Position numbers and translations under genes: made by a program. From contig VTFK01000122.1 in NCBI GenBank assembly GCA_009617715.1, positions 62,001 to 126,000 of the forward strand: a DNA stretch of 64,000 nt. Reading direction: 5' to 3'. This stretch comes from Plectrocnemia conspersa. Lineage: Eukaryota > Arthropoda > Insecta > Trichoptera > Polycentropodidae. Below the pieces are notes generated by a model. The model ran no database searches. It was not told the DNA's origin and was given only the letters and a program-made list of their open reading frames with translations. This document shows positions 27,553-62,257 of this stretch, piece by piece. Each line of letters opens with the position of its first letter. The stretch's first letter is position 1.

Positions 27553-28203
27553 TCAGAAAATTTTACCGAGCAAATAGCAGAGCATGGCAACGAATATAGT
27601 CCAGACGACGGTGCGGGCGACTTGGGAGTCGTCGGATTTGGTTTGCCTAAATAATTCGTCGAGTTTGATCAGCTCTTGCTTCATGATTGCGTGTTCTTTC
27701 CTCAGGGTTGACTCTTCTTCTCGCATGTGCCGGATTTGTTCGGATAAGTTTTTCAGCTCGTCGATGGTGCTCATGACTTCGTTCTTCAACGTAGAGCTAT
27801 CCGTTACGGTGGTGGCGGTGGTGATGACATCGTTGTTGAATACGCATTTTAACTTGTGTTTCAAGATGCTGTTTTGATCGGTCGTTTCCCAAAGTTGTTC
27901 GGTGGTTAAGATGGAATCTTCCGGTTCGATTATGTATTGTATCATGAACTTGTGCTTGTCTTCCAAATCTATAGAGTTCGCTTGCAGTGTTATGTCGGCG
28001 GTGACGGTGTCTCTGGGGTCCATGACGCCGGCGTTTGGTCTCACGTAGTACTTTTTAGGAGCGGTAGTCTTGAGCTTGAAGTGGACCTTGCTGTCGGTCA
28101 GATTAGTCATCTTGAGACTCGACGAGGAAGCCTTCTCGTAGGGCCCCCAGAACTGCAGCTGGACATCGGGCTCGAAGGCGATCACCTCGTTTTGTTTTGA
28201 CAT
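27553..28203 (-). CDS. Intronless VAP (VAMP-associated protein), endoplasmic-reticulum membrane-contact adaptor
   Basis: An uninterrupted 216-residue protein. VAPs sit in the ER membrane and bind FFAT-motif proteins, tethering the ER to other membranes and supporting lipid transfer. The MSP domain covers about residues 9-122 and contains FWGPY, KTTAPKKYYVRPN, KHKFMIQ and KLKCVF. Residues matching the FFAT-binding surface (K45, T46, T47, K85, M87) and the R55-P56-N57 turn are present. About residues 135-190 form a coiled coil, and the last 20 or so are a hydrophobic tail anchor with charged end. The start is ATG at 28203 (MSKQNEV), with G at -3; the frame extends further upstream only through a TTG, before a stop. 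Animal VAP genes normally have introns, so this single-exon copy nested antisense in the ASPP intron is probably a retrogene. Its intact frame and GC-richer codons suggest it is functional. Confidence 0.9.
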   Translation of the reverse strand: MSKQNEVIAFEPDVQLQFWGPYEKASSSSLKMTNLTDSKVHFKLKTTAPKKYYVRPNAGVMDPRDTVTADITLQANSIDLEDKHKFMIQYIIEPEDSILTTEQLWETTDQNSILKHKLKCVFNNDVITTATTVTDSSTLKNEVMSTIDELKNLSEQIRHMREEESTLRKEHAIMKQELIKLDELFRQTKSDDSQVARTVVWTIFVAMLCYLLGKIF

Positions 28204-28688
28204 TTCGCTCGGTGGGCAACACACGGACGAAGTGGACTTGCTACGACGACAGAACGGCGCCAACTGGTTTTACTTTGGCTATTCGGCGTTTCGCATGCAT
28301 ACGTGTATATTGCACACGGCGACTGGTGTGCACACGCTGCGCCGACACATGTCGCGCTTATGAATGAATAATGATACAAGGAATAGTGTACGATGTGGAT
28401 GACATGCTTATCCGACTTCCCTGCGAGTCTAATCTGTCAAACGTGAACGGTGACTCTAGTGTCATCTGTGAAGCAGGTTTGTAACTCTGATTACTGCGCC
28501 TGTGAAATTGCTGTTATACAATTTTTCAAGCTTAAAAGTAAAATAATTACATAGCTTGGAATATTTAAAAATAAAATAATTAATTATTAATACAAATAAA
28601 TATCTGTATTAATAAATAATTAAACCATAAAATATAATTTATTGTTTTTTAAAAAAAAGATTCAATTTATTATTTTATTCATATAATT
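28204..28688. other. Upstream region of VAP
   Basis: The first 250 bases upstream of the VAP start are CpG-rich compared with the flanks, consistent with a promoter or 5' UTR. No TATA box or initiator can be assigned with confidence. Beyond about 28480 the sequence is AT-rich and empty. Confidence 0.3.
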
Positions 28689-32114: not shown

Positions 32115-33124
32115 GTAAGCTTTTTAATTGTACTATAATTAATTAAAAACGTAAATACAACTACAACATTCTTGTGATTAAATATTTGCGCAAACGCTCC
32201 AGAAATAATTATTTTATGCGTGTGTTGTGTAACATCTCGGAAACTGTCAATAACAGGAAAATCCTCTGACAGACGGATATTGAGAGGGATCCGAGAGTAA
32301 GATGGACGTTTCATAAAACGCTCCATACGTACGTATAATATAAGAGTTAATTTCTTTAATATTGCGTTGTATGTAATTTTGGACAGTATTAAAACTCATC
32401 AGCTTTATTAGAAAGCAAAAGCTTGTGTGTAAAATAAACACACCTGCTAAATAGAAGAAGATTGATGGCACGCGAATTGTACTTGCTCATGAGCTAGATT
32501 TGTGTAAACAGTCAATTCGTTTATCGGCTCAATGAATAAGGGGAGGATCATCCCTCGTTTTTCACTAGTGGTCTCATGAAATATTCATCTTGTGTGAAAA
32601 ATCTTATATCCGTAATGTTATAAATAGCTGTGAATATATATATATTATATATTAAATATTTTTTTTCTAAAAAATATATATGAATAAAGTATGAATTTCT
32701 TGGAAATAAATTACTCAATATTTATGTAGCATAAATTATGTAAATGAATTATGTAATTAAATATTAATACAATCATTTGTTATGAAATATGAGTCGGCAC
32801 GTGTTGTTTCAAACAGTAACTATGATACCACAATGTTGACTTAATTATGAATAATTAACTAAAGGTGTATTGTAGTAATATAGCATTTCGTTTGGTTAAG
32901 GTATGTAACAATGGATTAAATAGTTAAAATTGTTTGATAGACGAGTAAGGCTTCTCAGTTAAATTTCACACGTGATAGAAATAAATATTTTTGATTAAAA
33001 GACATTAAAAAAATTAGGCATATATATTTTTGCTAGTTTAAAATTATTTCCATACGACACAATCGTATTTTTTAAACATAAAGCAAAAATGACAGCTTTG
33101 TTTGAAATTATGTGGATATTTTGT
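32115..33124. other. Gene-free intron stretch downstream of the second ASPP exon
   Basis: No further exon of the ASPP-like gene is recognisable. AT-rich, with only chance frames. Confidence 0.45.
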
Positions 33125-34343
33125 TCTATATCTTAATAATTCAATCCAATATTTTTCCATATTTTAAAAATATTGAGAAGCTGCTTAGTAAGGTTTTAAA
33201 TACATATGCAACTCAGTTCACAATATTTTATAATAACGAACTTGTCACATACAGCAGGGAAATATATCGGCCGGCGTGAATAACTTGATACACCGACTGA
33301 TCATTTTTTTAACTGTATTTTAAAACTCTATAATATTTGTTTCTTTGACATAATAAATTATTGTTTTTTTTTTTGCTTCTGTTTGATCCCAAAGCTTCCA
33401 TATTTATCTTTGTTTGAGTTAATTTTTACTCGTTATATTTATAGTTAGACGCTCTGTAGATGTTACATTTTAATAAATGATTGGTACTGGTCCTTGAAAT
33501 AATATGGTTATTTTTAGGGTACCCAAATTAATTACCCGGTTCTCGGGCAGTTTTTATAAAGGAACCGGGTACTCGATTCCTTTCCGTGTAATTGTTGTCA
33601 ACTATTATATACTGACCCGGAGTTCAAATTTACGAATAATATATATCTTGGAATTTTGAATTTAGTCTTAAATTTGAATTATAATTCATTTTACCTCTCC
33701 GACACCCCTCTTATCACTACCTACTCTGTATGCAGCTATGATTTTAACGGACTTCTTGAAAACACCGAATATTGTTGCCCAGAAGGGTTTAACTAATCTC
33801 TAAATCGGTTTTGAAAAATAGAAAAAAAATTAAACATGATATTGAAATGAAAAGAACCGGCTTCCTTTAAAAACACGCGGGAATCCGGGGCCCCATTCCG
33901 GTTCTTACGCGATTTGGAAGCCCTAATTATTTTTCTCTATATCTTAATAATTCAATACAACATTTTTACATATTTAAAAAATATTTAGAGGTTGCTTAGT
34001 ATGGTTTTAAATATATATACAACCCAGTTTATAATATTTTATAATAACGTACTTGTCACCTACAGTGTTGGAATGTCAGCAGGGAAATATATCGGCCGGC
34101 GTCAATAACTTGATACACCGACTGATCGATTTTTTTTATAATAATGTAAATTGAAACTAATATTATAATTTTTGTTTCTTTGGCATATTAAAATTATTGT
34201 ATCATAAAGCTTCCATAATGTTCTTTGCTTGAGTTATTTTTACTCGTAATATTTATCGTTAGACGCTCTGTAGATGCCACATTTTTGCCGTACTATTTTT
34301 TTGTTTTGAGGTGGTAAATAGTTGGTACTGATCCATAAACTCA
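33125..34343 (+). repeat. Diverged direct duplication flanking a MITE (33125-33497 and 33937-34343)
   Basis: Both copies share, in order, TATATCTTAATAATTCAAT, AATATTTTATAATAACG, GGGAAATATATCGGCCGGCG, ATAACTTGATACACCGACTG and TTAGACGCTCTGTAGATG. Each is about 370-400 bases, with many substitutions and indels, so the duplication is old. A hAT-type MITE (33515-33925) sits between them. Confidence 0.8.
33515..33925. mobile_element. hAT-type MITE
   Basis: Starts TAGGGTACCCAAATT and ends, in reverse complement, TAGGGCTTCCAAATC. Flanks GTTATTTT (33507-33514) and ATTATTTT (33926-33933) give an 8-base target duplication with one mismatch, as expected for hAT. The interior contains GGAACCGGGTACTCG and GGGGCCCCATTCCGG words near the ends but no coding frame. 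Length 411. Confidence 0.65.
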
Positions 34344-45686: not shown

Positions 45687-48220
45687 ATATATTTGTAATA
45701 TATTTTTAATAACCAATGAAAGCAAAACTGTAAAATATATCGAAAAATAATCTATATTTACATGTAGATGTAAATTTTGTAATTTAAAGAATAATAATAA
45801 TATCCTTAAATAGACGAACAACGATGCCCGATATTAATTATTGATTATTATGATTTCTTAAGCTTAAATAGATTTATTTAATAATAATAAAATCTAATTT
45901 AGCGATTATTGCGCAAACGAAAATTGTGCACACGAAAATTCCACACAGCAAAAATTCAGAATATATGTGATGGTTTGCTTATCATATATATTTTACTTTT
46001 AATTCCAGTTATTGTAATTTCATATCATATAAAATAACATATCTTATTTATTAAGCTCTTGTGTTTTACATAGAAGCTAAATAAGTAAGATATGTTATTT
46101 AATAGGATATGCAATTAACTGTTCTTGCTGATTGTAAAAGATTTTCAGACAAAATAAAAGTCTACTATTTAATAAATTGTTTATTGTTTTTTCGTAGTTT
46201 TTGCTTTCTTGTAAAGTTTTTTGGAGGAGAAATAGTGACGTTTAGGAATTAGATTCATTTAGTAGTATTTTTATTTAAATTATTTTTATAATTACATAGT
46301 TATTACAAATGATATGAATGATCGCCGGATGAGGACCCGCCGGTCGTCGGCCGTCGCACTCAAGAGTAAATATTGCCCACGTCAGTGTGTCAACTAATTT
46401 GTTGTCCAAATTTATTTTTTGGAATAACGAAATTATATAGTTATTCAATTCTAACTTTTAATCTATTCTTCATTTTATCAGTGCATAATTGAATTTTTGC
46501 GATAAGCATATTTTTCAGGAAACCACTGCTTATAAAATTAATTTCAGTAGCTTTTAGGTCCATGTATTTGCATTTTTCAATCTCAGATTAAAAAATAATT
46601 TTCAACCCCAAGACGCATTGCCTGTCGTCGCAACTCGGATCGGAGTAAATCTATTTCGCCCTTACTCGGGAGCAATTCTCACCCGAAACGCAAGAATGAA
46701 GATCTAATCTTGTTTAGTGAATACACATAAAAAACTTTTCCGTACAGCCCCTCCCTTCACCCTCAACCATCAGCTCGAGAGTTCCGAAAGATTAATGCCG
46801 GTAATTTCCTGGCGCAAATAAAATTCGCGATTTCCTACGCGGCTAAAGGGAACAATCGCTAAGAGAGATCTTGCTTTGTAGGTGAGCGAAAAAATGGCCG
46901 GCGTTGGCAATTTGACTCGGGCAATATAAACGGTGGGCTATGTTTAATAGCGGCGATGTGGCACAAGAATCCGGAAATTAAAACGCGAAAATATGTATGA
47001 AATTTTAAGTATGCGCGACGTCCCTTTGACGACACTCGTAGCGTCCGTCGCAACTTCCGGGAAACTTCCGAGAAACTTCCGGACGTCGGACAGTGTTCGA
47101 AGGGAAACGGAACTAGTTTGAAGTCGACTGTGTGCTTCTTTCGTTAACTAGACGACTTTGGTATTTTTACGTGTACAACTATTTTTATATTAATGTGGAG
47201 CTCAAAATATTTGCTATATTTGTTACACGCTGATTTAATTTTTTTTAAAATATATATATATAATATATATTATATAATAGCAGACTGAATCAACACGTAA
47301 CTATTGTCCATCTTATCCCGGATTTATCCCGATTAAGAGGTGAAAGGAGGTATTAGGTCATGAAGTGAATTTATGTTGTCAGACGATTATAATTGCGACC
47401 CACGGGTCATTTTGGCATAATACGTTAATCCTTCAGGACCGTTAAGGGCCGCGGGACGTCCACTCGGGATATTATATTGGACTTGAACTTTCGTACTAAA
47501 TTATTGACCTACCCTGATTTATTCTCTAACACCCCCGCCGCCACTGACAACGTGTCTTGGGTTAATTCTAAAACTCCGGGACGATTTATCTACGCGACCA
47601 AGTACATGAAGTGTGTGGGTTCGCAAATTCAGTTCTGTCATTTGCTCCGAAATGTGGAACACGATGCGAGTAGATTTCAATTAATAAACCTATTAAAGCT
47701 CGGTCGGATCATTTTGATAGTAGTACATTAACTTGTTATAACAGAGAGAGAGAGAGCCGAATGGTACGTACCTTACGTGCCTATGTATGTACCTTAAATT
47801 GTCGCTCTATTCGAAACTGAGAATTCACAATTAGCTGCTATTAATAGAATTCACATAATATGTAATACATGATTTCTTTAATACTATGCATTGAATGACA
47901 TATTCTAATATTTTAATTATGACAAATCACAACCAGTGATAAAAAATAAGTGCCGGAGCGCTGAACTTACACCCCCTCAATTTTTTTTAAATTGATATTT
48001 TAAAATATTTAAATTTTTTTAATGTTTTTGTCAGAATATAAAAACTTATCTCAACATTTCAGTAATGTATTATAGAATTTTTCTAATGTAATATGTTTAT
48101 TTTTACTATCCTCTTTCATGATTGCTACAGACTAAAGTGTTATCAAGGAATCACTGATAACTTATCAGTCTTCGCATTTGTTTTCATAAATAAAGTTTAA
48201 TAAATTAATCTAATTTATTT
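45687..48220 (+). repeat. Duplicated block A, copy 1 (A1)
   Basis: About 2.53 kb, nearly identical to A2 (48496-51040) throughout, including a hairpin at 46034-46098, a CpG-rich core at about 46600-47110 and an AG-rich microsatellite at about 47744. Differences are mostly one- or two-base indels, many in homopolymers. No coding frame keeps its reading between copies: one 63-64 codon minus-strand frame near 46859 is altered in A2. A1 runs at 48213-48220 straight into the A-rich tail of a minus-strand LINE fragment. Confidence 0.95.
46034..46098. repeat. Hairpin with 24-base arms in block A
   Basis: ATAACATATCTTATTTATTAAGCT (24 bases, 46034-46057) pairs with 46075-46098, with two mismatches. 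The same hairpin is kept, with more indels, in A2 at about 48862-48922. Confidence 0.7.
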
Positions 48221-48464
48221 ATTTTTATTTATTTTATTTTATTAATTTATTTAGCTTAATAGCTAATCTTTACATCTAACAAATTTAGTAAACATATATA
48301 AAAATATATAAAAAATACATAACAGAAAGAAAAAAATATACAATAATAAAGACTTAATATTATAATATTTTATTTCTATATGTACGAAGGTGTTTTTTTA
48401 TTCCATTTATAAAACCCGTTATATTTTTTTTGCTTTTTGGGAAAAAATTTCTTTGGGAAAACTA
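48214..48464 (-). mobile_element. LINE 3' fragment, antisense
   Basis: Reverse complement of about 59769-60004 of the LINE downstream: the tail, AGCTTAATAGCTAATCTTTA, and ATATGTACGAAGGTG are shared in order. The 3' tail end abuts block A1; the other edge stops abruptly about 30 bases before A2. Confidence 0.85.
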
Positions 48465-48495
48465 TCGGTATTACACTTCGTTCAGTTACGTATTG

Positions 48496-51040
48496 CTAAT
48501 ATTTGTGAAGATCTTTTAATAACCAATGAGAAACAAAACTGAAATATATCGAAAATAATCTATATTTACATGTAGATGTAAATTTTGTAATTTTAAAGAA
48601 TAATAATAATATCCTTAAATAGACGAGGAACAACGTGATGCGATATTATTATTGATTTAGTATGATTTCTTAAGCTTAAATAGATTTATTTAATAATAAT
48701 AAAATCTAATTTAGCGATTATTACACTAAAACGAAAATTATTGCACACGAAAATTCCACAGCAAAGAATTCAGAATGTAATGAATATGATGGTTTTGCTT
48801 GTCGCATAATATATTTACTTTTAATTCCAGTTATTGTAATTTCATTATCATATAAAATAACCATATCTTATTTATTAAGCTCTTGTGTTTTATAGAGCTA
48901 AATAAGTAAGATATGTTAATGGAGATAATATACAATTAACATTCTTGCTGATTGTAAAAGATTTTCAGACCAAAATAAAAAGTCTACCTATTTAATAAAT
49001 TGTTTGTGTTTTCGTAGTTTTGCTTTTCTTGTAAAGTTTTTTGAGGAGAAATAGTGACGTTTAGGAATTAGATTCATTTAGTAGTATTTTATTTAAATTA
49101 TTTTTTATAATTACATAGTTATTACAAATGATATGAATGATCGCCGGATGAGGAGGACCGCCGGTCGTCGGCCGTCGCACTCAAGAGTAAAATATTGCCC
49201 ATGTCAGTGTCAACTAATTTGTTGTCCAAATTTATTTTTTTTTTGGAATAACGAAATTATATAGTTATTCAATTCTAACTTTTAATCTATTCTTCATTTT
49301 ATCAGTGCATAATTGAATTTTGCGATAACATTTTTTTCAGTAAAACCACTGCTTTATAAAATTAAACAGTAGCTTTTAGGTCCATGTATTTGCATTTTTC
49401 AATCTCAGATTAAAAAAATAATTTTCAACCCCAAGACGCATTGCCTGTCGTCGCAACTCGGATCGGAGTAAATCTATTTCGCCCTTTTTACCGGGAGCAA
49501 TTCTCAAATCTTCGAAACGCAAGAATGAAGATCTAATCTTGTTTAGTGAATAATAAAAAAAAACTTTTCCGTACAGCCCTCCCTTCACCCTCAACCATCA
49601 GCTCGAGAGTTCCGAAAAGATTAATGCCGGTAATTTCCTGGCGCAAATAAAATTCGCGATTCCTACGCGGCTAAAGGAACAATCGCTAAGAGAGATCTTT
49701 GCTTTGTGGTGAGCGAAAATACCGGCGTTGGCAATTTGACTTCGGGCAATATAAACGGTGGGCTATGTTTAATAGCGGCGATGTGGCACAAGAACTGGAA
49801 ATTAAAACGCGAAAATATGTATGAAATTTTAAGTATGCGCGACGTCCCTTTGACGACACTCGTAGCGTCCGTCGCAACTTCCGGAAACTTCCGAGAAACC
49901 CCGGACGTCGGACAGTGTTCGAAGGAAACGGAACTAGTTTGAAGTCGACTGTGTGCTTATTTCGTTAACTAGACGACTTTGGTATTTTTACGTGTACAAC
50001 TATTTTTATATTAATGTGGAGCTCAAAATATTTGCTATATTTGTTACACGCTGATTTAATTTTTTTTTAAATATATATATAATATATATTATATAATAGC
50101 AGACTGAATCAACACGTAACTATTGTCCATCTTATCCCGGATTTATCCCGATTAAGAGCTGAAAGGAGGTATTAGGTCATGAAGTGAATTTATGTTGTCA
50201 GACGATTATAATTGCGACCCACGGGTCATTTTGGCATAATACGTTAATCCTTCAGGACCGTTAAGGGCCATGGGACGTCCACTCGGGATATTATATTGGA
50301 CTTGAACTTTCGTACTAAATTATTGACCTACCACGATTTATTCTCTAACACCCCGCCGCCACTGACAACGTGTCTTGGGTTAAATTTAAAACTCCGGGAC
50401 GATTTATCTACGCGACCAGAAGTACATGAAGTGTGTGGGTTTCGCAAAATTCAGTTCTGTCATTTGCTCCGAAATGTGGAACACGATGCGAGTAGATTTC
50501 AATTAATAAACCTATTAAAGCTCGGTCGGATCATTTTGATAGTAGTACATTAACTTGTTATAACAGAGAGAGAGAGCCGAATGGTACCGTACCTTTTATG
50601 CCTATGTACCTAAATTGTCGCTCTATTCGAAACTGAGAATTCACAATTAGCTGCTATTAATAGAATTACATAATATGTAATACATGATTTCTTTAATACT
50701 ATGCATTGAATAACATATTCTAATATTTTAATTATGACAAATCACAACCAGTGGTGTAGTGATAAAAAATAAGTGCCAGAGCGCTGAACTTACACCCCTT
50801 CAATTTTTTTTAAATTGATATTTTAAAATATTTTTGTTTTTTTATTTTTGTGAGAATAAAAAAACTTATCTCAACATTTAAGTAATGTATTATAGAATTT
50901 TCTTAATGTAATGTCTGTATTTTTATTATCCTGTTTCATGATTGCTACAAACTAAAGTGTTATCAAGGAATCACTGATAACATATCAGTCTTCGCATTTG
51001 TTTTCGCAAATTAAATTTAATAAATTAACCTAATTTATTT
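48496..51040 (+). repeat. Duplicated block A, copy 2 (A2)
   Basis: Second copy of block A, about 2.55 kb, and directly joined to block B1 at 51040/51041 (TAATTTATTT|GGCAATCGG). This junction has no LINE sequence. Non-coding, as in A1. Confidence 0.95.
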
Positions 51041-53227
51041 GGCAATCGGCTGCAAAAGTGTTTATATGTCACAGAAGAAAGACTCTGTGTTGTATGTTTA
51101 TGACTTTGTACAAACAATTTATAGAATTGGACTGCCTATTGTTACTTTGATTCTCTTGTGTTACACGGGCGCAGATAGGAACATTTTTTTCAGTTTTGAT
51201 TTTGCTGTTAATTTTGGCGCGCTCCGGCCCCCTATATCACTGATCATAACTGCTGGTGTTGTTTAAATTTAAAATATTTTTTAATAGATCAAATCATTGA
51301 TAAGATATGGTGGAGACTCTTTTGAACAAGTAAAGGGCAATCTACTTTCAAGTTCGTTAAGTGTTCTAGATAAACGGCCAATTAAACACGTGAGCTATGA
51401 AGTGGTCAATGATATGATAAATATGTATATTAGTTTATTAGTATTTAGAGATATCTTTAAGAATCGACTTTTTACTGTAATATTCTTTGAAGTTTAAATA
51501 GTATTAATATAAGATTTAAAAAATACCACCCAAATATTTTTTAATATCCGTCAAATTTTTGAGCTGATGTGTAACTGATGGTATTTATTATTATTATTTA
51601 TTAAAACTGCAAACCTACTTTTAAATTATACAAAATGTTATGTTTTAATATTATTTTAATGCTATGCAAACATTTTGTTATTTTTCTTATTTTAATAATA
51701 TTTAGCTAAGTTGCAAACCTATTTAAAAACGTAATAAAATGTTTACTGTTATTATTATCTAGCTAAGTTTTTAACCTAATCTTTAATGATATACAATATT
51801 TAGTTTCAAATCCAACTTTGAATAACATAATTTTTTTTTTCTGGAAATATTTAGCTAAGTTGTAAACCAATTTTCAAATGTATTGAAAATGCTATTGAAC
51901 CATTTTAACTATCATTAAAAATCCTAAAATTAATGTCTGTTTTCAACCATTAAATTTAAAATTAGAATAAAAAAATCAGAACGAAACAAAAATAATATTT
52001 AAAACCCAAGATGTTGAGGGTTCGGTATACGCACACTCGCGCGCTTCGGTACCTCACGACAGTGAGGTACCAAAGTTTCTATAATAACAAATAATTTTAC
52101 TTAAAAATAGAGCATTTGGAATTAAAAGTAAAATATATTTGACAATAAAACAATCACATATGTTCAGAATTCTTGCTGTGTGGAATTTTCGTGTGCGCAA
52201 TAATTTTACTAAAAATTCCTATTAATAAACTAAATAGTTGTTTCTTGCTTATTTTATATTAAAACCATCGATGGTTTGTTTCATGTTAAACTTATTTTAA
52301 ACTTTTCCTACGTCTGGTTTTGAGGTCACCTGTACCTGACAATTTACGTCACGAAATTGCACACGCCGCATTTAACGCGTAATCAAATTGGGACCACTGC
52401 TGCTTAATAGCGAAGTTTGACAATCTTAAAACTACGAGCACAGGTTAACTCTGTTATACGACAAGTTTGCAGCATAATTGTGGTCATGCGGGAGAAAAAC
52501 CCCATCAAAGGCAACTGTCTAATGTCACGGCTGTGAAACGACGGCAAGTTTGATTTGGCAAATTCGCCAATGGCCCAAGACAGGCGGTTTGGCGTCAAAT
52601 TGCGTATGCTCTGATATATACGGTCGTGAGATATGACACGACATAGGATACGGTGGGAAAAAGTACGTAACATCGATCGAGGGAAATGCCACGTAGAATG
52701 CGCTTTCCCGCGGGATTTAGTAATGCCATCAGCGAGAGGTTCGGATGGATTCGATTTAATTTTTTTTTTTGCGTAACGAAATTTATATTTACAGGAGAAT
52801 AGGTTTTATCTGTGACAATATATAGAATATGAATAGTGGCGGCTCAGGGTAAAACATATTTCCAAGCTTCATGAATCGAATAAAGCATATCTAAAATGAT
52901 GATAATATATAATCCCAAATCAACTTATATTTTATTAGGCATTCTGGTTTCTAAATGTTTTTCTTCGAGAAATGAGAATATGGATGTTAACTTCTCGATT
53001 TTAGAAATAAGGAAATTTAATTTTTACAAAAAAAACGTTCTAAAGTTCGAAAAAAAATCAGCAATTTTCTCAAAAAAAATAGAATTTGTGATTTAGCATT
53101 TTTTTTCATGAGAAAAAAACACTAAATCAAGTAGTAGTAACTTAATACTCTAATTTGCCTTTGACGACTTCTATGGATTATTAGATAACTTATTTGGTAT
53201 GAAATTATTATAAATATATTATTTATT
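51041..53227 (+). repeat. Duplicated block B, copy 1 (B1)
   Basis: About 2.19 kb, beginning GGCAATCGGCTGCAAAAGTG, nearly identical to B2. It contains CpG-rich parts at 52020-52070 and 52310-52760 and short frames that are not maintained between copies. About 100 bases at 52117-52215 are an inverted copy of 45905-46017 in block A. After 53227 it breaks into LINE sequence. Confidence 0.95.
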
Positions 53228-53330
53228 CCTATATTAGAGTTATTTATTACTATTTTGGTACTATCATCTAACACATTTTTATAATTAATAAACATACATT
53301 TAGTTTTATTCTCATTTAATTTACTCTCAT
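53228..53330 (-). mobile_element. LINE internal fragment, antisense
   Basis: Reverse complement of about 59138-59230 of the LINE: AGAGTTATTTATTACTATTT, TTTTATAATTAATAAACATA and GTTTTATTCTCATTTAATTT are shared in order. It encodes a piece of the region after the reverse transcriptase active site. Confidence 0.8.
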
Positions 53331-53395
53331 TTAATTTGACAGATTTTATTTATATTTTATTCTCATTTAATTTGACAGATTTTATTTATATTTTA
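53323..53395. repeat. Short tandem repeat at the LINE 5' junction
   Basis: TTCTCATTTAATTTGACAG and ATTTTATTTATATTTTA appear twice in a row, with a third partial copy (CTCATTTAATTT) before them. Such repeats at a LINE 5' edge are consistent with slippage at the insertion junction. Confidence 0.7.
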
Positions 53396-53476
53396 CCGAA
53401 GTTCGCGATCTTATGTCAACCGAGGTTGCACTCCCCTGAATACGGTCGATATATTCGGGCAAAATTCAAAAGAAAA
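53396..53476. other. Segment present only before block B2
   Basis: About 80 bases, CpG-containing, between the LINE fragment and the start of B2. It is absent at the A2/B1 junction. It may be extra host sequence or filler from the insertion. Confidence 0.5.
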
Positions 53477-55681
53477 GGCAATCGGCTGCAAAAGTGTTTA
53501 TATGTCACAGAAGAAAGACTCTGTTTTGTATGTTTATGACTTTGTACAAACAACCTATAGAATTGGACTGCCTATTGTTACTTTGATTATTTTGTGTTAC
53601 ACGGGCGCAGATAGGAACATTTTTGATTTTGCTGTTAATTTTGGCGCGCTCCGGCCCCATTATATCACTGATCATAACTGCTGGTGTTGTTTAAATTAAA
53701 AATATTTTTTAATATATTAAATCATTGATAAGATATGGTGGAGACTCTTTTGAACAAGTATAGGGCAATCTACTTTCAAGTTCGTTAAGTGTTCTAGATA
53801 AATGGCCAATTAAACACGTGAGCTATGAAGTGGTCAATGATATGATAAATAAATATGTATTTAGAATACTGTGAATGCGATATTATTTATTAGTTTATTA
53901 GTATTTAGAGATATCTTTTAGAATCGACTTTTTACTGTAATGTTCTTTGAAGTTTAAATAATATTAATATAAAATTTAAAAAATACCACACAAATATTTT
54001 TTATTATCCGTCATATTTTTGAGCTGATGTGTAACTGATGGTATTTATTATTATTATTTATTAAAACTGCAAACCTACTTTTAAATGATACAAAATGTTA
54101 CGTTTTAATATTGGAATTTTTTATTTTATTAATATATAGTTAAGTTGCAAACCTATTTTAAAACGTAATAAAATGTTTGGTTTGATTATTATCTAGCTAA
54201 GTTTTAAGCCTAATCTTAAATGATATACAATATTTAGTTTTATCATTAAATATTTAAGTTTCACATCCAACTTTGAATAACATAAAATTTTTCTTCTGGA
54301 AATATTTAGCTGTTGTAAACCAATTTTCAAATGAATTGAAAATGCTATTGAACCATTTTAACTATCATTAAAAATCCTAAAATGAATGTCTAACTTCAAC
54401 CATTCAATTTTAAACTAGAATAAAAAAATCAGAACGAAACAAAAATAATATTTAAAACCCAAGAAGTTGAGGGTCCGGTATACGCACACTCGCGCGCTTC
54501 GGTACTTCACGACAGTGAGGTACCAAAGTTTCTATAATAACACATAATTTTACTTAGTATTTGGAATTAAAAGTAAAATATATTTGACAATAAAACAATC
54601 ACATATGTTCAGAATTCTTGCTGTGTGGAATTTTCGTGTGCGCAATAATTTTACTAAAAATTCCTATTAATAAACTAAATATTTGTTTGTTGCTTATTTT
54701 ATATTAAAACCATCGATGGTTTGTTTCATGTTAAACTTATTTTTAAACTTTCCTACGTCTGGTTTGAGGTCACCTGTACCTGACAATTTACGTCACGAAA
54801 TTCGCACACGCCGCATTTAACGCGTAATCAAATTGGGACCACTGCTGCTTAATAGCGAAGTTTGACAATCTTAAAACTACGAGCACAGGTTAACTCTGTT
54901 ATACGACAAGTTTGCAGCATAATTGTGGTCATGCGGGAGAGAGAAAACCCCCATCAAAGGCAACTGTCTAATGTCACGGCTGTGAAACGACGGCAAGTTT
55001 GGGATTTGCCAAATTCGCCAATGGCCCAAGACAAGGGGCGGTTTGGCAGTCAAATTGCGTATGCTCTGGATATATACGGTCGTGAGATATGCGACACGAC
55101 ATAGGATACGGTGGAAAAAAAAAAGTACGTAACATCGATCGAGGGAAATGCCACGTAGAATGCGCTTTCCCGCGGGATTTAGTAATGCCATCAGCGAGAG
55201 GTTCGGATGGATTCGATTTAATTTTTTTTTTGCGTAACGAAATTTATATTTACAGGAGAATAGGTTTTATCTGTGACAATATATAGAATATGAATAGTGG
55301 CGGCTCAGGGTAAACATATTTCCAAGTTTCATGAATCGAATAAAGCATATCTAAAATGATGATAATATATAATTTAAAATCAACTTATATTTTATTAGGC
55401 ATTCTGGTTTCTAAATGTTTTTTCTTCGAGAAATGAGAATATGGATGTTAACTTCTCGATTTTAGAAATATGAAATTTAATTTTTACAAAAAAACGTTCT
55501 AAAAAGTTCGAAAAATCAGCAATTTTCTCAAAAAAATAAGAATTTGTGATTTAGCATTTTTTTCGAGAAAAAACACTAAATCAAGTAGTAGTAACTTAAT
55601 ACTTAATTTGCCTTTTGACGGACTTATGGATTATTAGATAACTTATTTGGTATGAAATTATTATAAATATATTATTTATTC
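53477..55681 (+). repeat. Duplicated block B, copy 2 (B2)
   Basis: About 2.2 kb matching B1 from GGCAATCGGCTGCAAAAGTG to TATTATTTATT. Differences are again dominated by short indels. The inverted match to block A is at about 54562-54660. It continues into unique sequence after 55681. Confidence 0.95.
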
Positions 55682-56362
55682 ACTTATATTTAAAATCTTA
55701 ATATATTTTTATTGAAATACCTTAATACTATAATGATCTTTTACATACATTTATTCATGATGTTGTTATTTAAATTCGACGGATAAAATCATACAAAAAA
55801 GTGTGCTTAATAAAAAACGTTCAAAAGCTAAACCTGCATCGAAATAAAATATAAAAAATAGTATTTTGCTCTATAACAAGTTTTATATTAAGTTGATCGT
55901 ACCCTTATACAAACTTTAATGAGACTTGCAATTTTTTAAGGCTGTTAATTATTTTGTTTTGAAGACTTAGACTTGAATTTTTGTTATAAAATATAACTCT
56001 TAATAACCTTTATAATATTCGCTAAAAAAAGAAAACCTATAATAAAAATAGTTTTTTGCTTCAAAACAAGTTTTGTATTAAGTCGATTGGACCTCCATAC
56101 AAACTTTTATAAGAATAGAAATTTTATTAAGGCTGTTCATTCCTTTGTTTTATCGACTAAGATTTGAATTTTTGATATAAAAAATAATAGATATAACATT
56201 CGCCAAAAAAAATATGTCACATTTTTGAAAAATACTCCGTTGGAAAAAATATTATTTATATTTATATGATTTATTCACTTATATTTAAAATATTTATTAT
56301 GTATTTATTGAAATTCTTTAATACTATAATAACCTTTTACATACATTATTTTATTATTTAAA
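55676..56362 (+). repeat. Nested direct repeats
   Basis: Outer direct repeats of about 90 bases (55676-55770 and 56270-56362) share CACTTATATTTAAAAT, TTTATTGAAAT, TTAATACTATAAT and CTTTTACATACATT. Between them, a unit of about 193 bases is repeated (about 55873-56055 and 56061-56230), with ACAAGTTTTATATTAAGT, CATACAAACTTT, AAGGCTGTTA and GACTTAGACTTGAATTTTTG. The copies are diverged. No coding; a degenerate satellite or non-autonomous element is possible. Confidence 0.75.
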
Positions 56363-58419: not shown

Positions 58420-60004
58420 AGGAAATAATAGGAACTAAATTAAATAATTTAATAAATAAAGCACTCTCCTTAGGAGAAATGCCTGAAAATTTAAAGATTG
58501 CTACTATTGTACCTATACCTAAAATAAAAAATAGTAAAAAAGTTGAAGAAATAAGACCAATCAACACGCTACCGTGTATAGAAAAAATAATAGAAGAAGT
58601 AGTAATCAAACAATTAAAGGAATTTATTACTTCTCAAAACATAATATGTGAACAACAATCGGGATTCAGAGAAAAGCATTCCACTGAACTGCATTACAAG
58701 TAGTGATAAATGATTGGCTGTTGGCTAAGGATACAAACAAAATCATTGGAGCAGTTTTCTTGGATTTCAAGAGAGCCTTCGAAACAATAGACAGAAAAAT
58801 AATGTTAAAGAAATTGGAAAGTATAGGTATAAGTGATATAGTTTTAAGATGGTTTAATAATTACTTATATAAAAAAAAAACAAAAAAGTTAAAATAAATA
58901 ATGTATATTCTGAAGAGAAATTAGTGTCTTATGGAGTACCACAAGGGTCTAAATTGGGACCATTGTTATTTGTTTTGTATATTAGTGATATAGTTAATAA
59001 CGTGAAAAAATGTAAAATTCATCTATTTGCGGATGACACATTAATGTATTGCATAGGTGATAACATTAAAGAAATTGTAAATAATTTAAATAATGAATTA
59101 AGTATATTAGAAATATGGTTAAAGAATAATGTACTTAAATTAAATGAGAATAAAACTGAATGTATGTTTATTAATTATAAAAATGTGTTAAATAATAGTA
59201 CCAAAATAGTAATAAATAACTCTATTATAGAAATAGTGGATAATATAAAATATTTAGGAGTACTTGTTGATACAAAATTAAATTTTAAAGAACATTGTAA
59301 TTACATATTAAAAAAAATTAGTAGAAAAATAGGTTTATTATCTAGATTAAGAAATATATTAAGTATAAATACAAAAAAAATAATTTACAATAGTATAATA
59401 TTGCCCCATTTTAATTATTGTGCAACACTGTTAAATATGTTAAATAAATTAGATAAACAAATGTTGCAAAAAAATTACAAAATAGGGCAATGAGAGTAAT
59501 CTTAAATAAAAATAGATTAACTAATTGTAAAAGTATGATTGATAGATTAGAATGGTTGAATGTTCAAGAAATATTGAGTATGAATGTTTTAGTATTTATA
59601 TACAAGTTAGAAAATAATATGTTACCTGAATATTTTAATAAGTATTTAATAAGAAATAAAGATGTACATAAATATAATACTAGAAATAGAGAAAATTTAA
59701 AGATAATTAAGTATAAGAAAACGAGTACGGCTAGGGGAATTATGTACGGAGGTTTTGATTTATATAATAGTCTTCCAAGAGAAATCTGAAACAGCAAAAA
59801 TATAACAGGTTTCATAAATGGAATAAAAAAACACCTTCGTACATATAGAAATAAATTATAATATTAAGACTTTATTATTGTATATTTTTTCTTTCTGTTA
59901 TGTATTTTTTATATATTTTTTATATATGTTTACTAAATTTGTTAGATGTAAAGATTAGCTATTAAGCTAAATAAATTAATAAAATAAAAAAATAAATAAA
60001 TAAA
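58420..60004 (+). pseudogene. 5'-truncated LINE with reverse transcriptase, Jockey/CR1-like
   Basis: Protein evidence runs over four frames: PENLKIATIVPIPK and EQQSGFREKHST (58479 on), GAVFLDFKRAFETIDR (about 58750), YGVPQGSKLGPLLF and HLFADDTLMY (active site FADD at 59026-59037), then IKYLGVLVD and HNTRNR-like YNTRNRENLK. These are reverse transcriptase blocks and the C-terminal tail typical of Jockey/CR1-group LINEs, which copy through RNA at a nicked target. The endonuclease part and everything 5' are absent. Frame shifts fall near 58690, 58880 and 59480, at least two in A-runs, and an in-frame TGA follows SLPREI at 59787. It ends in an A-rich TAAA tail. It is dead as read; some shifts may be sequencing errors. 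Confidence 0.85.
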
Positions 60005-62257
60005 TATCAAATACAGTTCATACGACCATCCAATTTCATCAATAATTCAATAGAGTTTGTGTTATGCTTAATTCAAATGAAAATATTAAGTTAAGGCGGA
60101 AGAACTAGTTAATAAAATGGTATTTGTTCATAAATAAGGCATTAAGATTTATTATAAAGAGTTCTACCTTTCTGTTTCATTGAAATTGTTTATATATAAG
60201 CGCAGCTTATATTTACTATGAATACTTATTTCTAACCGGTTTACCATATAATTCACAATTACCCGTGAAAATTGACTTAAAAGATTTATTATTGCATTAT
60301 TAGCGATATCAAACAAACTAATAATACAACACCTAAATTTAATTTATTAACAAAAAATTATAAAATAGTATCTACAATTTTTTTTGTTACAAATTATTAT
60401 AAAGTCGAGGAAGCTAACCGAGGGTTAATTTTGCGTGTAGGTAATGTATCCAGTGGTTGCAACAGTTTCGATAAAGCTCAGCGATATCTAAGTTTCTAGG
60501 TGCAAAGTCCATCACGGAAGGTTTCTAAGGAATGTCCTCTAATAAAACTGTAAATCTAGCGTTTATATTCATTAATGAGCTTTATAGACACGAAATAAAA
60601 TAATTTGTTATCCGTAGGTATAGATCGATATTATCAGTATGTTGACTGACCGGTTAGTACGAAATTTATTTGATATGTTTAAAAAAAAAAGGTTCTTTCA
60701 TTTAAATCGTTATAAAAGAAGATGTAATATCTTCGTATTTTCATCTAAAAGCAACACCTCACAGCGCCTGTTACTAAACAAACGCTTGTTATTTAGGTGT
60801 AAAAGTAAGCAATAATTTTACAGAATGCTGTTTCAGTAAAATATTTGAAAATGGAATGCCGCTCTAGTTTACAAATGTTACGTTTTATAATTAAAATAGT
60901 GGCATAATAACTTAATATAAAAATCATTGTTTTCGCCGCTTCGTAAATGTTGCGAATGCTGAAAGTAAAACGGATCATTTTTGTCTGAATTTAACAAAAC
61001 GGTTTAAATTGTCGCTTATCGCGACAATTTTTGGTGAACTTGCATTGCAGATTTTTTTAGACAAGTTAACATTATTTTATAAATGCATTCCGGCAAGCTC
61101 TTATTGTTATCATACTATTTTTGTGAACCTATTTTTTCTGCAAAAGTAAAGATAAATTGATTGAATACATATAAGACTAGATTATGGTGATTGTGTGTTT
61201 TTAATTTTATCTTCCTTTTCGAAATCAAATATTCCTGCCGCATTCAGAGTTAGTGTGTGTAATACGTTGCATACACTAAAAATAAATGGAATGGACACAC
61301 CTCATATGTATTGAATCTAACTATCAAAGTTGCTATAAACGTTATTTATTGACACTTTAATTTTGGAGATTACATTGTTATCTAACGTTCGCATTTTACC
61401 TAGTCAAAATTTACCATTGTTACATATATGTGTGTATTACATTTACATACATTGTACGTACCATACAAATTTGTTTCGCCACACGTACGATAAGAACATT
61501 TTACGACCAACTTTATACAATGTTCAAGCATATATTCACTTTGGTTTCACATTTAAGATTCAACACAAAGTCGGATGATACACTTGCGCAAGTCCTTTTT
61601 ATAACATAATACATTACACTTGTCCATAAACGAAATCATTGAACAGAATAATGCCTACAATCACGAGCCATTGTGCCTTTTGCCTTACGTTTTGCTCTAC
61701 CTGTGCGAAACACAAACACATTCTTCAGAATTCGTCCGTTGACGTTTCTTCGAACCCTGTCGCACGTGTAGTGGTGCCAGCCCTGAAACTTTACTGGCGC
61801 TTCTCAAACTTTCTGTGATACTAAAGTTTGACGTGAAATTCACGTGTGTATGTTTTGTGAAATGAACGAAAAAAACAATATTTGTTCGATCGATTTCACC
61901 TTTGAATTGTGGCGCGAGCGAAGTAGTGATACATTTGTACCTACACCGTCTCACCTGTATTTCGTATATACCATTTACAGGTTGCTGATACGAGCCTACT
62001 TGTGGGGTTACTACCTATCTCGCTCGAACTGTGCGCTTGGTGCCAGGTAGAGAAAGAGACGGGCTGTCATTGTTTCACCGGCGCGAACGTCACCGTAGTA
62101 TTCGGCGTAAGGCACCCCCACACGCTCATTATGTTTATTTTCGGGCAATTCATTTTTAATTTATTTATGAACTAACTTTTTTCTAATCGATAAAGCCAGA
62201 ATGTATATTCTACATTAATATTTTTATAATATGTTTTTATAAATTTATTTTTTACTT
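60005..62257. other. Gene-free stretch
   Basis: AT-rich, with a CpG-rich part at about 61650-62110 without recognisable coding sequence; a distal promoter or conserved element is possible. One small hairpin is listed separately. Confidence 0.4.
61007..61032. repeat. Short perfect hairpin
   Basis: AAATTGTCGC pairs with GCGACAATTT around a five-base loop. No run of T follows and no RNA gene is indicated. Confidence 0.6.

What the first reader, a model, noticed from the sequence alone, without database searches (positions are those of the whole stretch)
45687..55681. Two long blocks duplicated in an interleaved order that reads as two alleles fused: LINE-free inside LINE-bearing
Order is A1 (45687-48220), LINE piece, A2 (48496-51040), B1 (51041-53227), LINE piece, B2 (53477-55681). 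A1/A2 differ in length by about 10 bases and B1/B2 by about 20. A2 joins B1 directly (empty site), while A1 runs into the 3' tail and B2 is preceded by a more 5' piece of the same antisense LINE. The simplest reading is one locus A-B whose LINE-bearing allele was split, with the empty allele placed inside. The alternative is a real tandem duplication through the LINE.
Basis: partly seen in the sequence, partly recalled or inferred. Interest (0 to 1): 0.85.

Follow-up and report, generated by a model that had tools for sequence, protein, structure and literature searches.

The report
Assembly error with sequencing adapter inside
The doubled stretch is best explained as an assembly mistake, not a real duplication: a piece of the other parental copy, with a nanopore sequencing adapter still attached, was pasted into the middle of a mobile element.

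Summary
The repeat layout is confirmed: A1 45689-48220 / A2 48499-51040 (92.9%), B1 51041-53228 / B2 53477-55681 (91.0%), with antisense pieces of one LINE family at the A1/A2 and B1/B2 joints. With a gap-tolerant aligner the outer parts of A and B differ mostly by small indels, over half homopolymer-type, like raw nanopore errors; near the LINE site substitutions and 8-29 base indels prevail, like alleles. Two inverted-repeat partners place errors of the left part in A2. Simplest account: 48466-53228 (4763 bp) is one read, or a thin read-sized contig, of the LINE-lacking allele, spliced whole into the other allele's LINE. Corrections: A2/B1 is not a clean empty site (53324-53476 has no counterpart), and 536 bp of LINE middle is missing. 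Not a real feature. The window's own genome and reads could not be examined.

The parts
45689..48220 (+). A1: left flank of the LINE-bearing allele
   Evidence: 92.9% to 48499-51040; runs into the LINE tail
48213..48465 (-). LINE piece 1, 3' end of the element with (ATTT)n-like tail; the last ~65 bases are indel-rich against the other copy
   Evidence: 90% to 60005-59767
48475..48497 (+). 23 bases of the Oxford Nanopore Y-adapter top strand, read-start orientation
   Evidence: 24-mer with 1 mismatch (23 exact), only match with up to 3 mismatches in the window, 0 of 100 shuffles; adapter identity
48499..51040 (+). A2: the same stretch from the LINE-lacking copy; left ~1.4 kb rich in small indels
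51041..53228 (+). B1: right flank of the LINE-lacking copy, continuous with A2
   Evidence: 91.0% to 53477-55681
53229..53323 (-). LINE piece 2, from within the RT reading frame of the other copy
   Evidence: 95.8% to 59230-59136
53324..53476 (.). stretch between LINE and B2 with no counterpart in A2-B1; contains a short local tandem repeat
   Evidence: no LINE match apart from a 19-base piece, no match of note in the window
53477..55681 (+). B2: right flank of the LINE-bearing allele
48466..53228 (+). proposed inserted block (adapter + A2 + B1), 4763 bp, read-sized
   Evidence: inference; length

Best explanation
A haplotypic (heterotype) false duplication. The sampled individual is probably heterozygous here: one allele is A-LINE-B, the other A-B without the LINE. 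One nanopore read, or a thinly covered read-sized contig, of the LINE-lacking allele, beginning with its untrimmed adapter (48475-48497) and ending at about 53228, was placed whole into a break within the LINE of the other allele. So the left border of A is the read start, the right border of B the read end, the A/B border the LINE site, and the split in the LINE the former break. Shown: the repeats, the adapter, the zones of difference, the excess of indels in A2. Inferred: heterozygosity, that the block is one read, and that a contig-joining or gap-filling step did it.
For: Exact 23-base adapter at the A1-LINE/A2 joint, 0 of 100 shuffles (identity). A2 begins one or two bases after it. Outer A: 65 small indels (37 homopolymer-type) vs 19 substitutions; outer B: 26 (15) vs 4; beside the LINE in B: 40 substitutions, 10 small indels (1 homopolymer-type), five indels of 8-29 bases. 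Inverted partner of 45923-46007: A1 9 mismatches, no gap; A2 8 mismatches, 7 gap openings; palindrome 103 bp in A1, 54 bp in A2. Precedent: in 9 of 25 testable stretches holding the same 23 bases in public prokaryote assemblies a same-strand repeat spans the adapter; in L002, L014 and L034 it starts within 23 bases of it at 87-93% identity.
Against: No adapter remnant at the second joint, 53228/53229 (best scores 19 and 17, below the best of a shuffled window, 28). With MAFFT the outer right part of B (52791-53227) shows more substitutions than indels, so that zone's character depends on the aligner. Small indels also occur in the middle of A (14 in 47500-47799). No independent partner tells which of B1/B2 carries errors. 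Read depth and own genome not examined (and eight earlier tries). In the four control repeats aligned, small indels outnumber substitutions in 2 of 4 and differences are highest next to the adapter in 1 of 4.
Confidence: 0.86

Rival explanations
1. The first joint is one chimeric nanopore read: a molecule ending in the LINE followed, unsplit, by a second molecule with its adapter, and the assembler trusted it.
For: Adapter in the middle between two inserts; the last ~65 bases of LINE piece 1 are also indel-rich against the other copy.
Against: Two molecules joined at random would rarely come from the same locus, in the same direction, as the two alleles (inference); it does not explain the second joint.
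Confidence: 0.07
2. A and B copies are paralogues from two places of the genome, not alleles, joined by the same kind of error.
For: About 3.6% substitutions near the LINE site, high for alleles in many species (general knowledge).
Against: Substitutions fall to 0.5-1.3% in the outer zones and the copies flank the same site with and without a LINE; the join is artificial in any case.
Confidence: 0.05
3. A real duplication through the LINE: a LINE-lacking copy of A-B lies inside the LINE of A-LINE-B.
For: The repeats and their continuity without N.
Against: Nanopore adapter at the joint; read-like indels in A2; the nested order A1-A2-B1-B2 is not what a simple tandem copy of A-B gives (A-B-A-B).
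Confidence: 0.01

Closest known systems
Heterotype (haplotypic) false duplication as described for the vertebrate genome assemblies (PMC8081667, passages seen)
   Same: Two haplotypes of a divergent region both placed in one sequence and looking like a duplication.
   Different: Here the second haplotype sits nested inside a mobile element of the first, with a sequencing adapter left in and no gap between.
Homotype false duplication at contig boundaries (same paper, passages)
   Same: Block of about read length, lower consensus quality at its edge.
   Different: Substitutions and 8-29 base indels near the LINE and the presence/absence of the LINE point to two haplotypes, not one read set duplicated.
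Adapter-marked scaffold joints in NZ_JAAVSH020000001.1 (loci L002, L014, L034)
   Same: The exact 23 adapter bases followed within 23 bases by a block that repeats the preceding sequence at 87-93%.
   Different: An N run still marks those joints; those are prokaryote scaffolds, so the two copies there need not be haplotypes.

Membership tests
Heterotype false duplication | Two long, highly similar copies of one stretch in one sequence | tested here: met
Heterotype false duplication | Artificial junction between the copies | tested here: met
   Nanopore adapter at 48475-48497; second joint 53228/53229 carries no mark
Heterotype false duplication | Copies carry haplotype-type differences | tested here: inconclusive
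   Substitutions and longer indels near the LINE site, LINE present in one and absent in the other; alleles not told from paralogues
Heterotype false duplication | Half read depth on each copy | not testable with these tools
   No reads held; own genome unreachable
Polymorphic LINE insertion with clean empty site | Both pieces from one LINE family, in order and orientation of one element | tested here: met
   59767-60005 then 59136-59230, both minus strand, 536 bp between absent
Polymorphic LINE insertion with clean empty site | The other copy equals the two flanks joined, with one copy of a target-site duplication and nothing else different | tested here: not met
   53324-53476 has no counterpart in A2-B1; no target-site duplication seen by BLAST
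Real tandem duplication | Continuous genomic DNA across the joint | tested here: not met
   Synthetic adapter sequence between the copies

The most novel reading that the evidence does not exclude
A real nested rearrangement exists (a LINE-lacking copy of A-B inside the LINE of another copy), and the adapter was left at the joint because a contig end happened to fall there.
Probability: 0.01. Interest if true: 0.35.

Novelty: not a real feature. Interest (0 to 1): 0.06.

Why it matters
As biology it matters little. It is a clear case in which a false duplication can be recognised from sequence alone, by an adapter remnant at the joint and read-like indels in the copy that follows it. Searching an assembly for the adapter's 23 bases would flag such joints before they are taken for segmental duplications. 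The stretch should not be used for copy-number or mobile-element age estimates.

Tried and rejected
Real tandem duplication: rejected because of the adapter at the joint. Adapter at the second joint 53228/53229: scored in 53150-53520 for the top and bottom adapter strands, scores 19 and 17, no better than background. A 50-base sequence recalled as another nanopore adapter: 0 matches in the window (its letters were not checked against a source, so this says little). Target-site duplication of the LINE: none seen by BLAST. tRNA scan: 0 genes. Paper searches on false duplications and on nanopore adapters at contig ends: listings seen, only PMC8081667 opened, passages only. One search listed 6 papers holding the 23 bases; 2 of the 6 were opened, passages only. 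No search was made for this locus in print, since its organism was not determined; a Motile_Sperm (MSP) domain ORF (27556-28269) and a LINE reverse transcriptase suggest an animal (inference).

Full report
OBSERVATION. The two spacers hold antisense pieces of one LINE family whose other copy lies at about 58.4-60.0 kb on the + strand: 48213-48465 matches 60005-59767 and 53215-53323 matches 59247-59136. ORF 58873-59490 of that copy meets Pfam RVT_1 at 4.9e-17; ORF 58422-58700 matches it below the curated cut-off, and ORF 59457-59786 matches no family.

THE DECISIVE FEATURE. Between the first LINE piece and A2, 48475-48497 holds all 23 bases of ACTTCGTTCAGTTACGTATTGCT. A 24-base pattern with up to 3 mismatches finds this one place in the window, with 1 mismatch, and nothing in 100 dinucleotide-preserving shuffles. 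By local alignment it scores 46, the next best unrelated place 29, and a shuffled window 28. PMC7490894 (passage) gives AATGTACTTCGTTCAGTTACGTATTGCT as the start adapter of Oxford Nanopore ligation reads; PMC9965538 (passage) gives it as the 3' part of the Y-adapter top strand. A2 begins one or two bases further on, so the adapter stands where the start of a read has it. LINE homology runs to 48465, so only nine bases (48466-48474) are unassigned.

ZONES OF DIFFERENCE. With an aligner that makes gaps cheap, the outer left part of A (A1 45700-47130) shows 65 indels of 4 bases or less, 37 of them homopolymer-type, against 19 substitutions. The outer right part of B (B1 52441-53227) shows 26, 15 homopolymer-type, against 4. 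B beside the LINE site (51041-52140) shows 40 substitutions, 10 small indels (1 homopolymer-type) and five indels of 8-29 bases; the last 320 bases of A show 12 substitutions, 10 small indels (1 homopolymer-type) and one of 8. Per 300 bases of A from the left the small indels number 21, 16, 10, 13, 5, 1, 14, 9 (and 2 in the last 120), so they thin out away from the adapter but come back in 47500-47799. The split depends on the aligner: MAFFT also finds many small indels in the outer left part of A and few in B beside the LINE, but it calls more substitutions in outer A, and in 52791-53227 it substitutions against 5 small indels.

WHICH COPY IS AT FAULT. A1 45923-46007 has an inverted partner in B (52117-52201; 54562-54646). 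A1 aligns to it with 9 mismatches and no gap, A2 with 8 mismatches and 7 gap openings. A palindrome of 103 bp at 81.6% in A1 is left with 54 bp at 74.1% in A2. So at least in these two places the small indels sit in A2, the copy that follows the adapter. I found no such partner for the right part of B.

CONTROL. An exact scan of genome contigs (one genome for each of 84,980 prokaryote species) for the 23 bases gave 34 stretches from 13 records, 20 of them in one Hi-C scaffold, NZ_JAAVSH020000001.1. 16 of 34 have N within 200 bases, 9 others have 39 bases or fewer between the adapter and an end of the fetched stretch, and 9 have neither. 25 of 34 had more than 100 bases on both sides and could be tested for repeats across the adapter: 9 of 25 have a same-strand repeat, 4 of 25 only an inverted one (L007, L015, L017, L025), 12 of 25 none. 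In L002, L013, L014 and L034 the right copy starts within 23 bases of the adapter; in L032, where the adapter is on the other strand, the left copy ends beside it. Four of the nine were aligned in detail: L002, L014 and L034 (1.3-1.5 kb at 87-93%) have an N run between the left copy and the adapter; L010's repeat starts 359 bases after it. Small indels outnumber substitutions in 2 of these 4 (L002 65 vs 45, L010 23 vs 17), not in L014 (45 vs 78) and L034 (20 vs 43), and differences are densest next to the adapter only in L002. The control thus shows that untrimmed adapters mark false direct repeats in public assemblies; it does not show that the error profile is always the same.

HOW IT AROSE. 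48466-53228 is 4763 bases: adapter, A2 and B1 without a break. It stands where 536 bases of the LINE (59231-59766 of the other copy) are missing. The simplest history is that the LINE-bearing allele was broken within the LINE, and one read or thin contig of the other allele, held there by its homology to both flanks, was put in whole. PMC8081667 (passages) describes both ingredients: heterotype false duplications, where separate haplotype contigs are wrongly placed in the primary assembly, and homotype ones at contig boundaries, about as long as the reads. A chimeric read could make the first joint but not the second, and would need two molecules of one locus. Which program did it cannot be told.

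A2-B1 is not a clean empty site. LINE homology ends at 53323; the 153 bases from there to B2 have no LINE match except a 19-base piece of a local repeat, no match of note in the window, and no counterpart in A2-B1, and no target-site duplication was seen. Either the LINE allele gained this with the insertion or the other allele lost it.

LIMITS. The window's own genome could not be reached in nine tries, and no reads are held, so depth, other contigs and further adapter remnants in this assembly were not examined. That the copies are alleles is inferred. The second joint carries no mark of its own; that it is artificial follows from the first joint and from the block's being continuous.

Noticed in passing
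45923-46007 and 52117-52201 (also 54562-54646): An 85-base inverted pair (89%) brackets the LINE site in both copies, as terminal inverted repeats of an older DNA element would; no target-site duplication was established. Used only to tell which copy carries the errors.
   Followed up: partly
46015-46117: A 103-base near-perfect palindrome (81.6%) in A1, degraded in A2.
   Followed up: partly
47900-48219 and 51041-52140: Substitutions between the copies are concentrated beside the LINE site (about 3.6%) and fall to 0.5-1.3% further out; cause not known (old haplotypes, or polishing that evened out the rest).
   Followed up: no
53324-53476: Stretch between LINE and B2 without counterpart in the other copy; holds a tandem pair of about 36 bases.
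   Followed up: partly
L001-L034, above all NZ_JAAVSH020000001.1: Public prokaryote assemblies hold the nanopore adapter inside scaffolds or at contig ends: 34 stretches in 13 records, 20 in one scaffold, several beside false direct repeats.
   Followed up: partly
27556-28269 (-): ORF of 238 codons with a Motile_Sperm (MSP) domain, 2.3e-23, resembling VAMP-associated proteins (recalled).
   Followed up: no
33117-33471 / 33928-34285; 55842-55996 / 56028-56187: Older direct repeats at 78-80%, unlike the A and B pairs in age.
   Followed up: no
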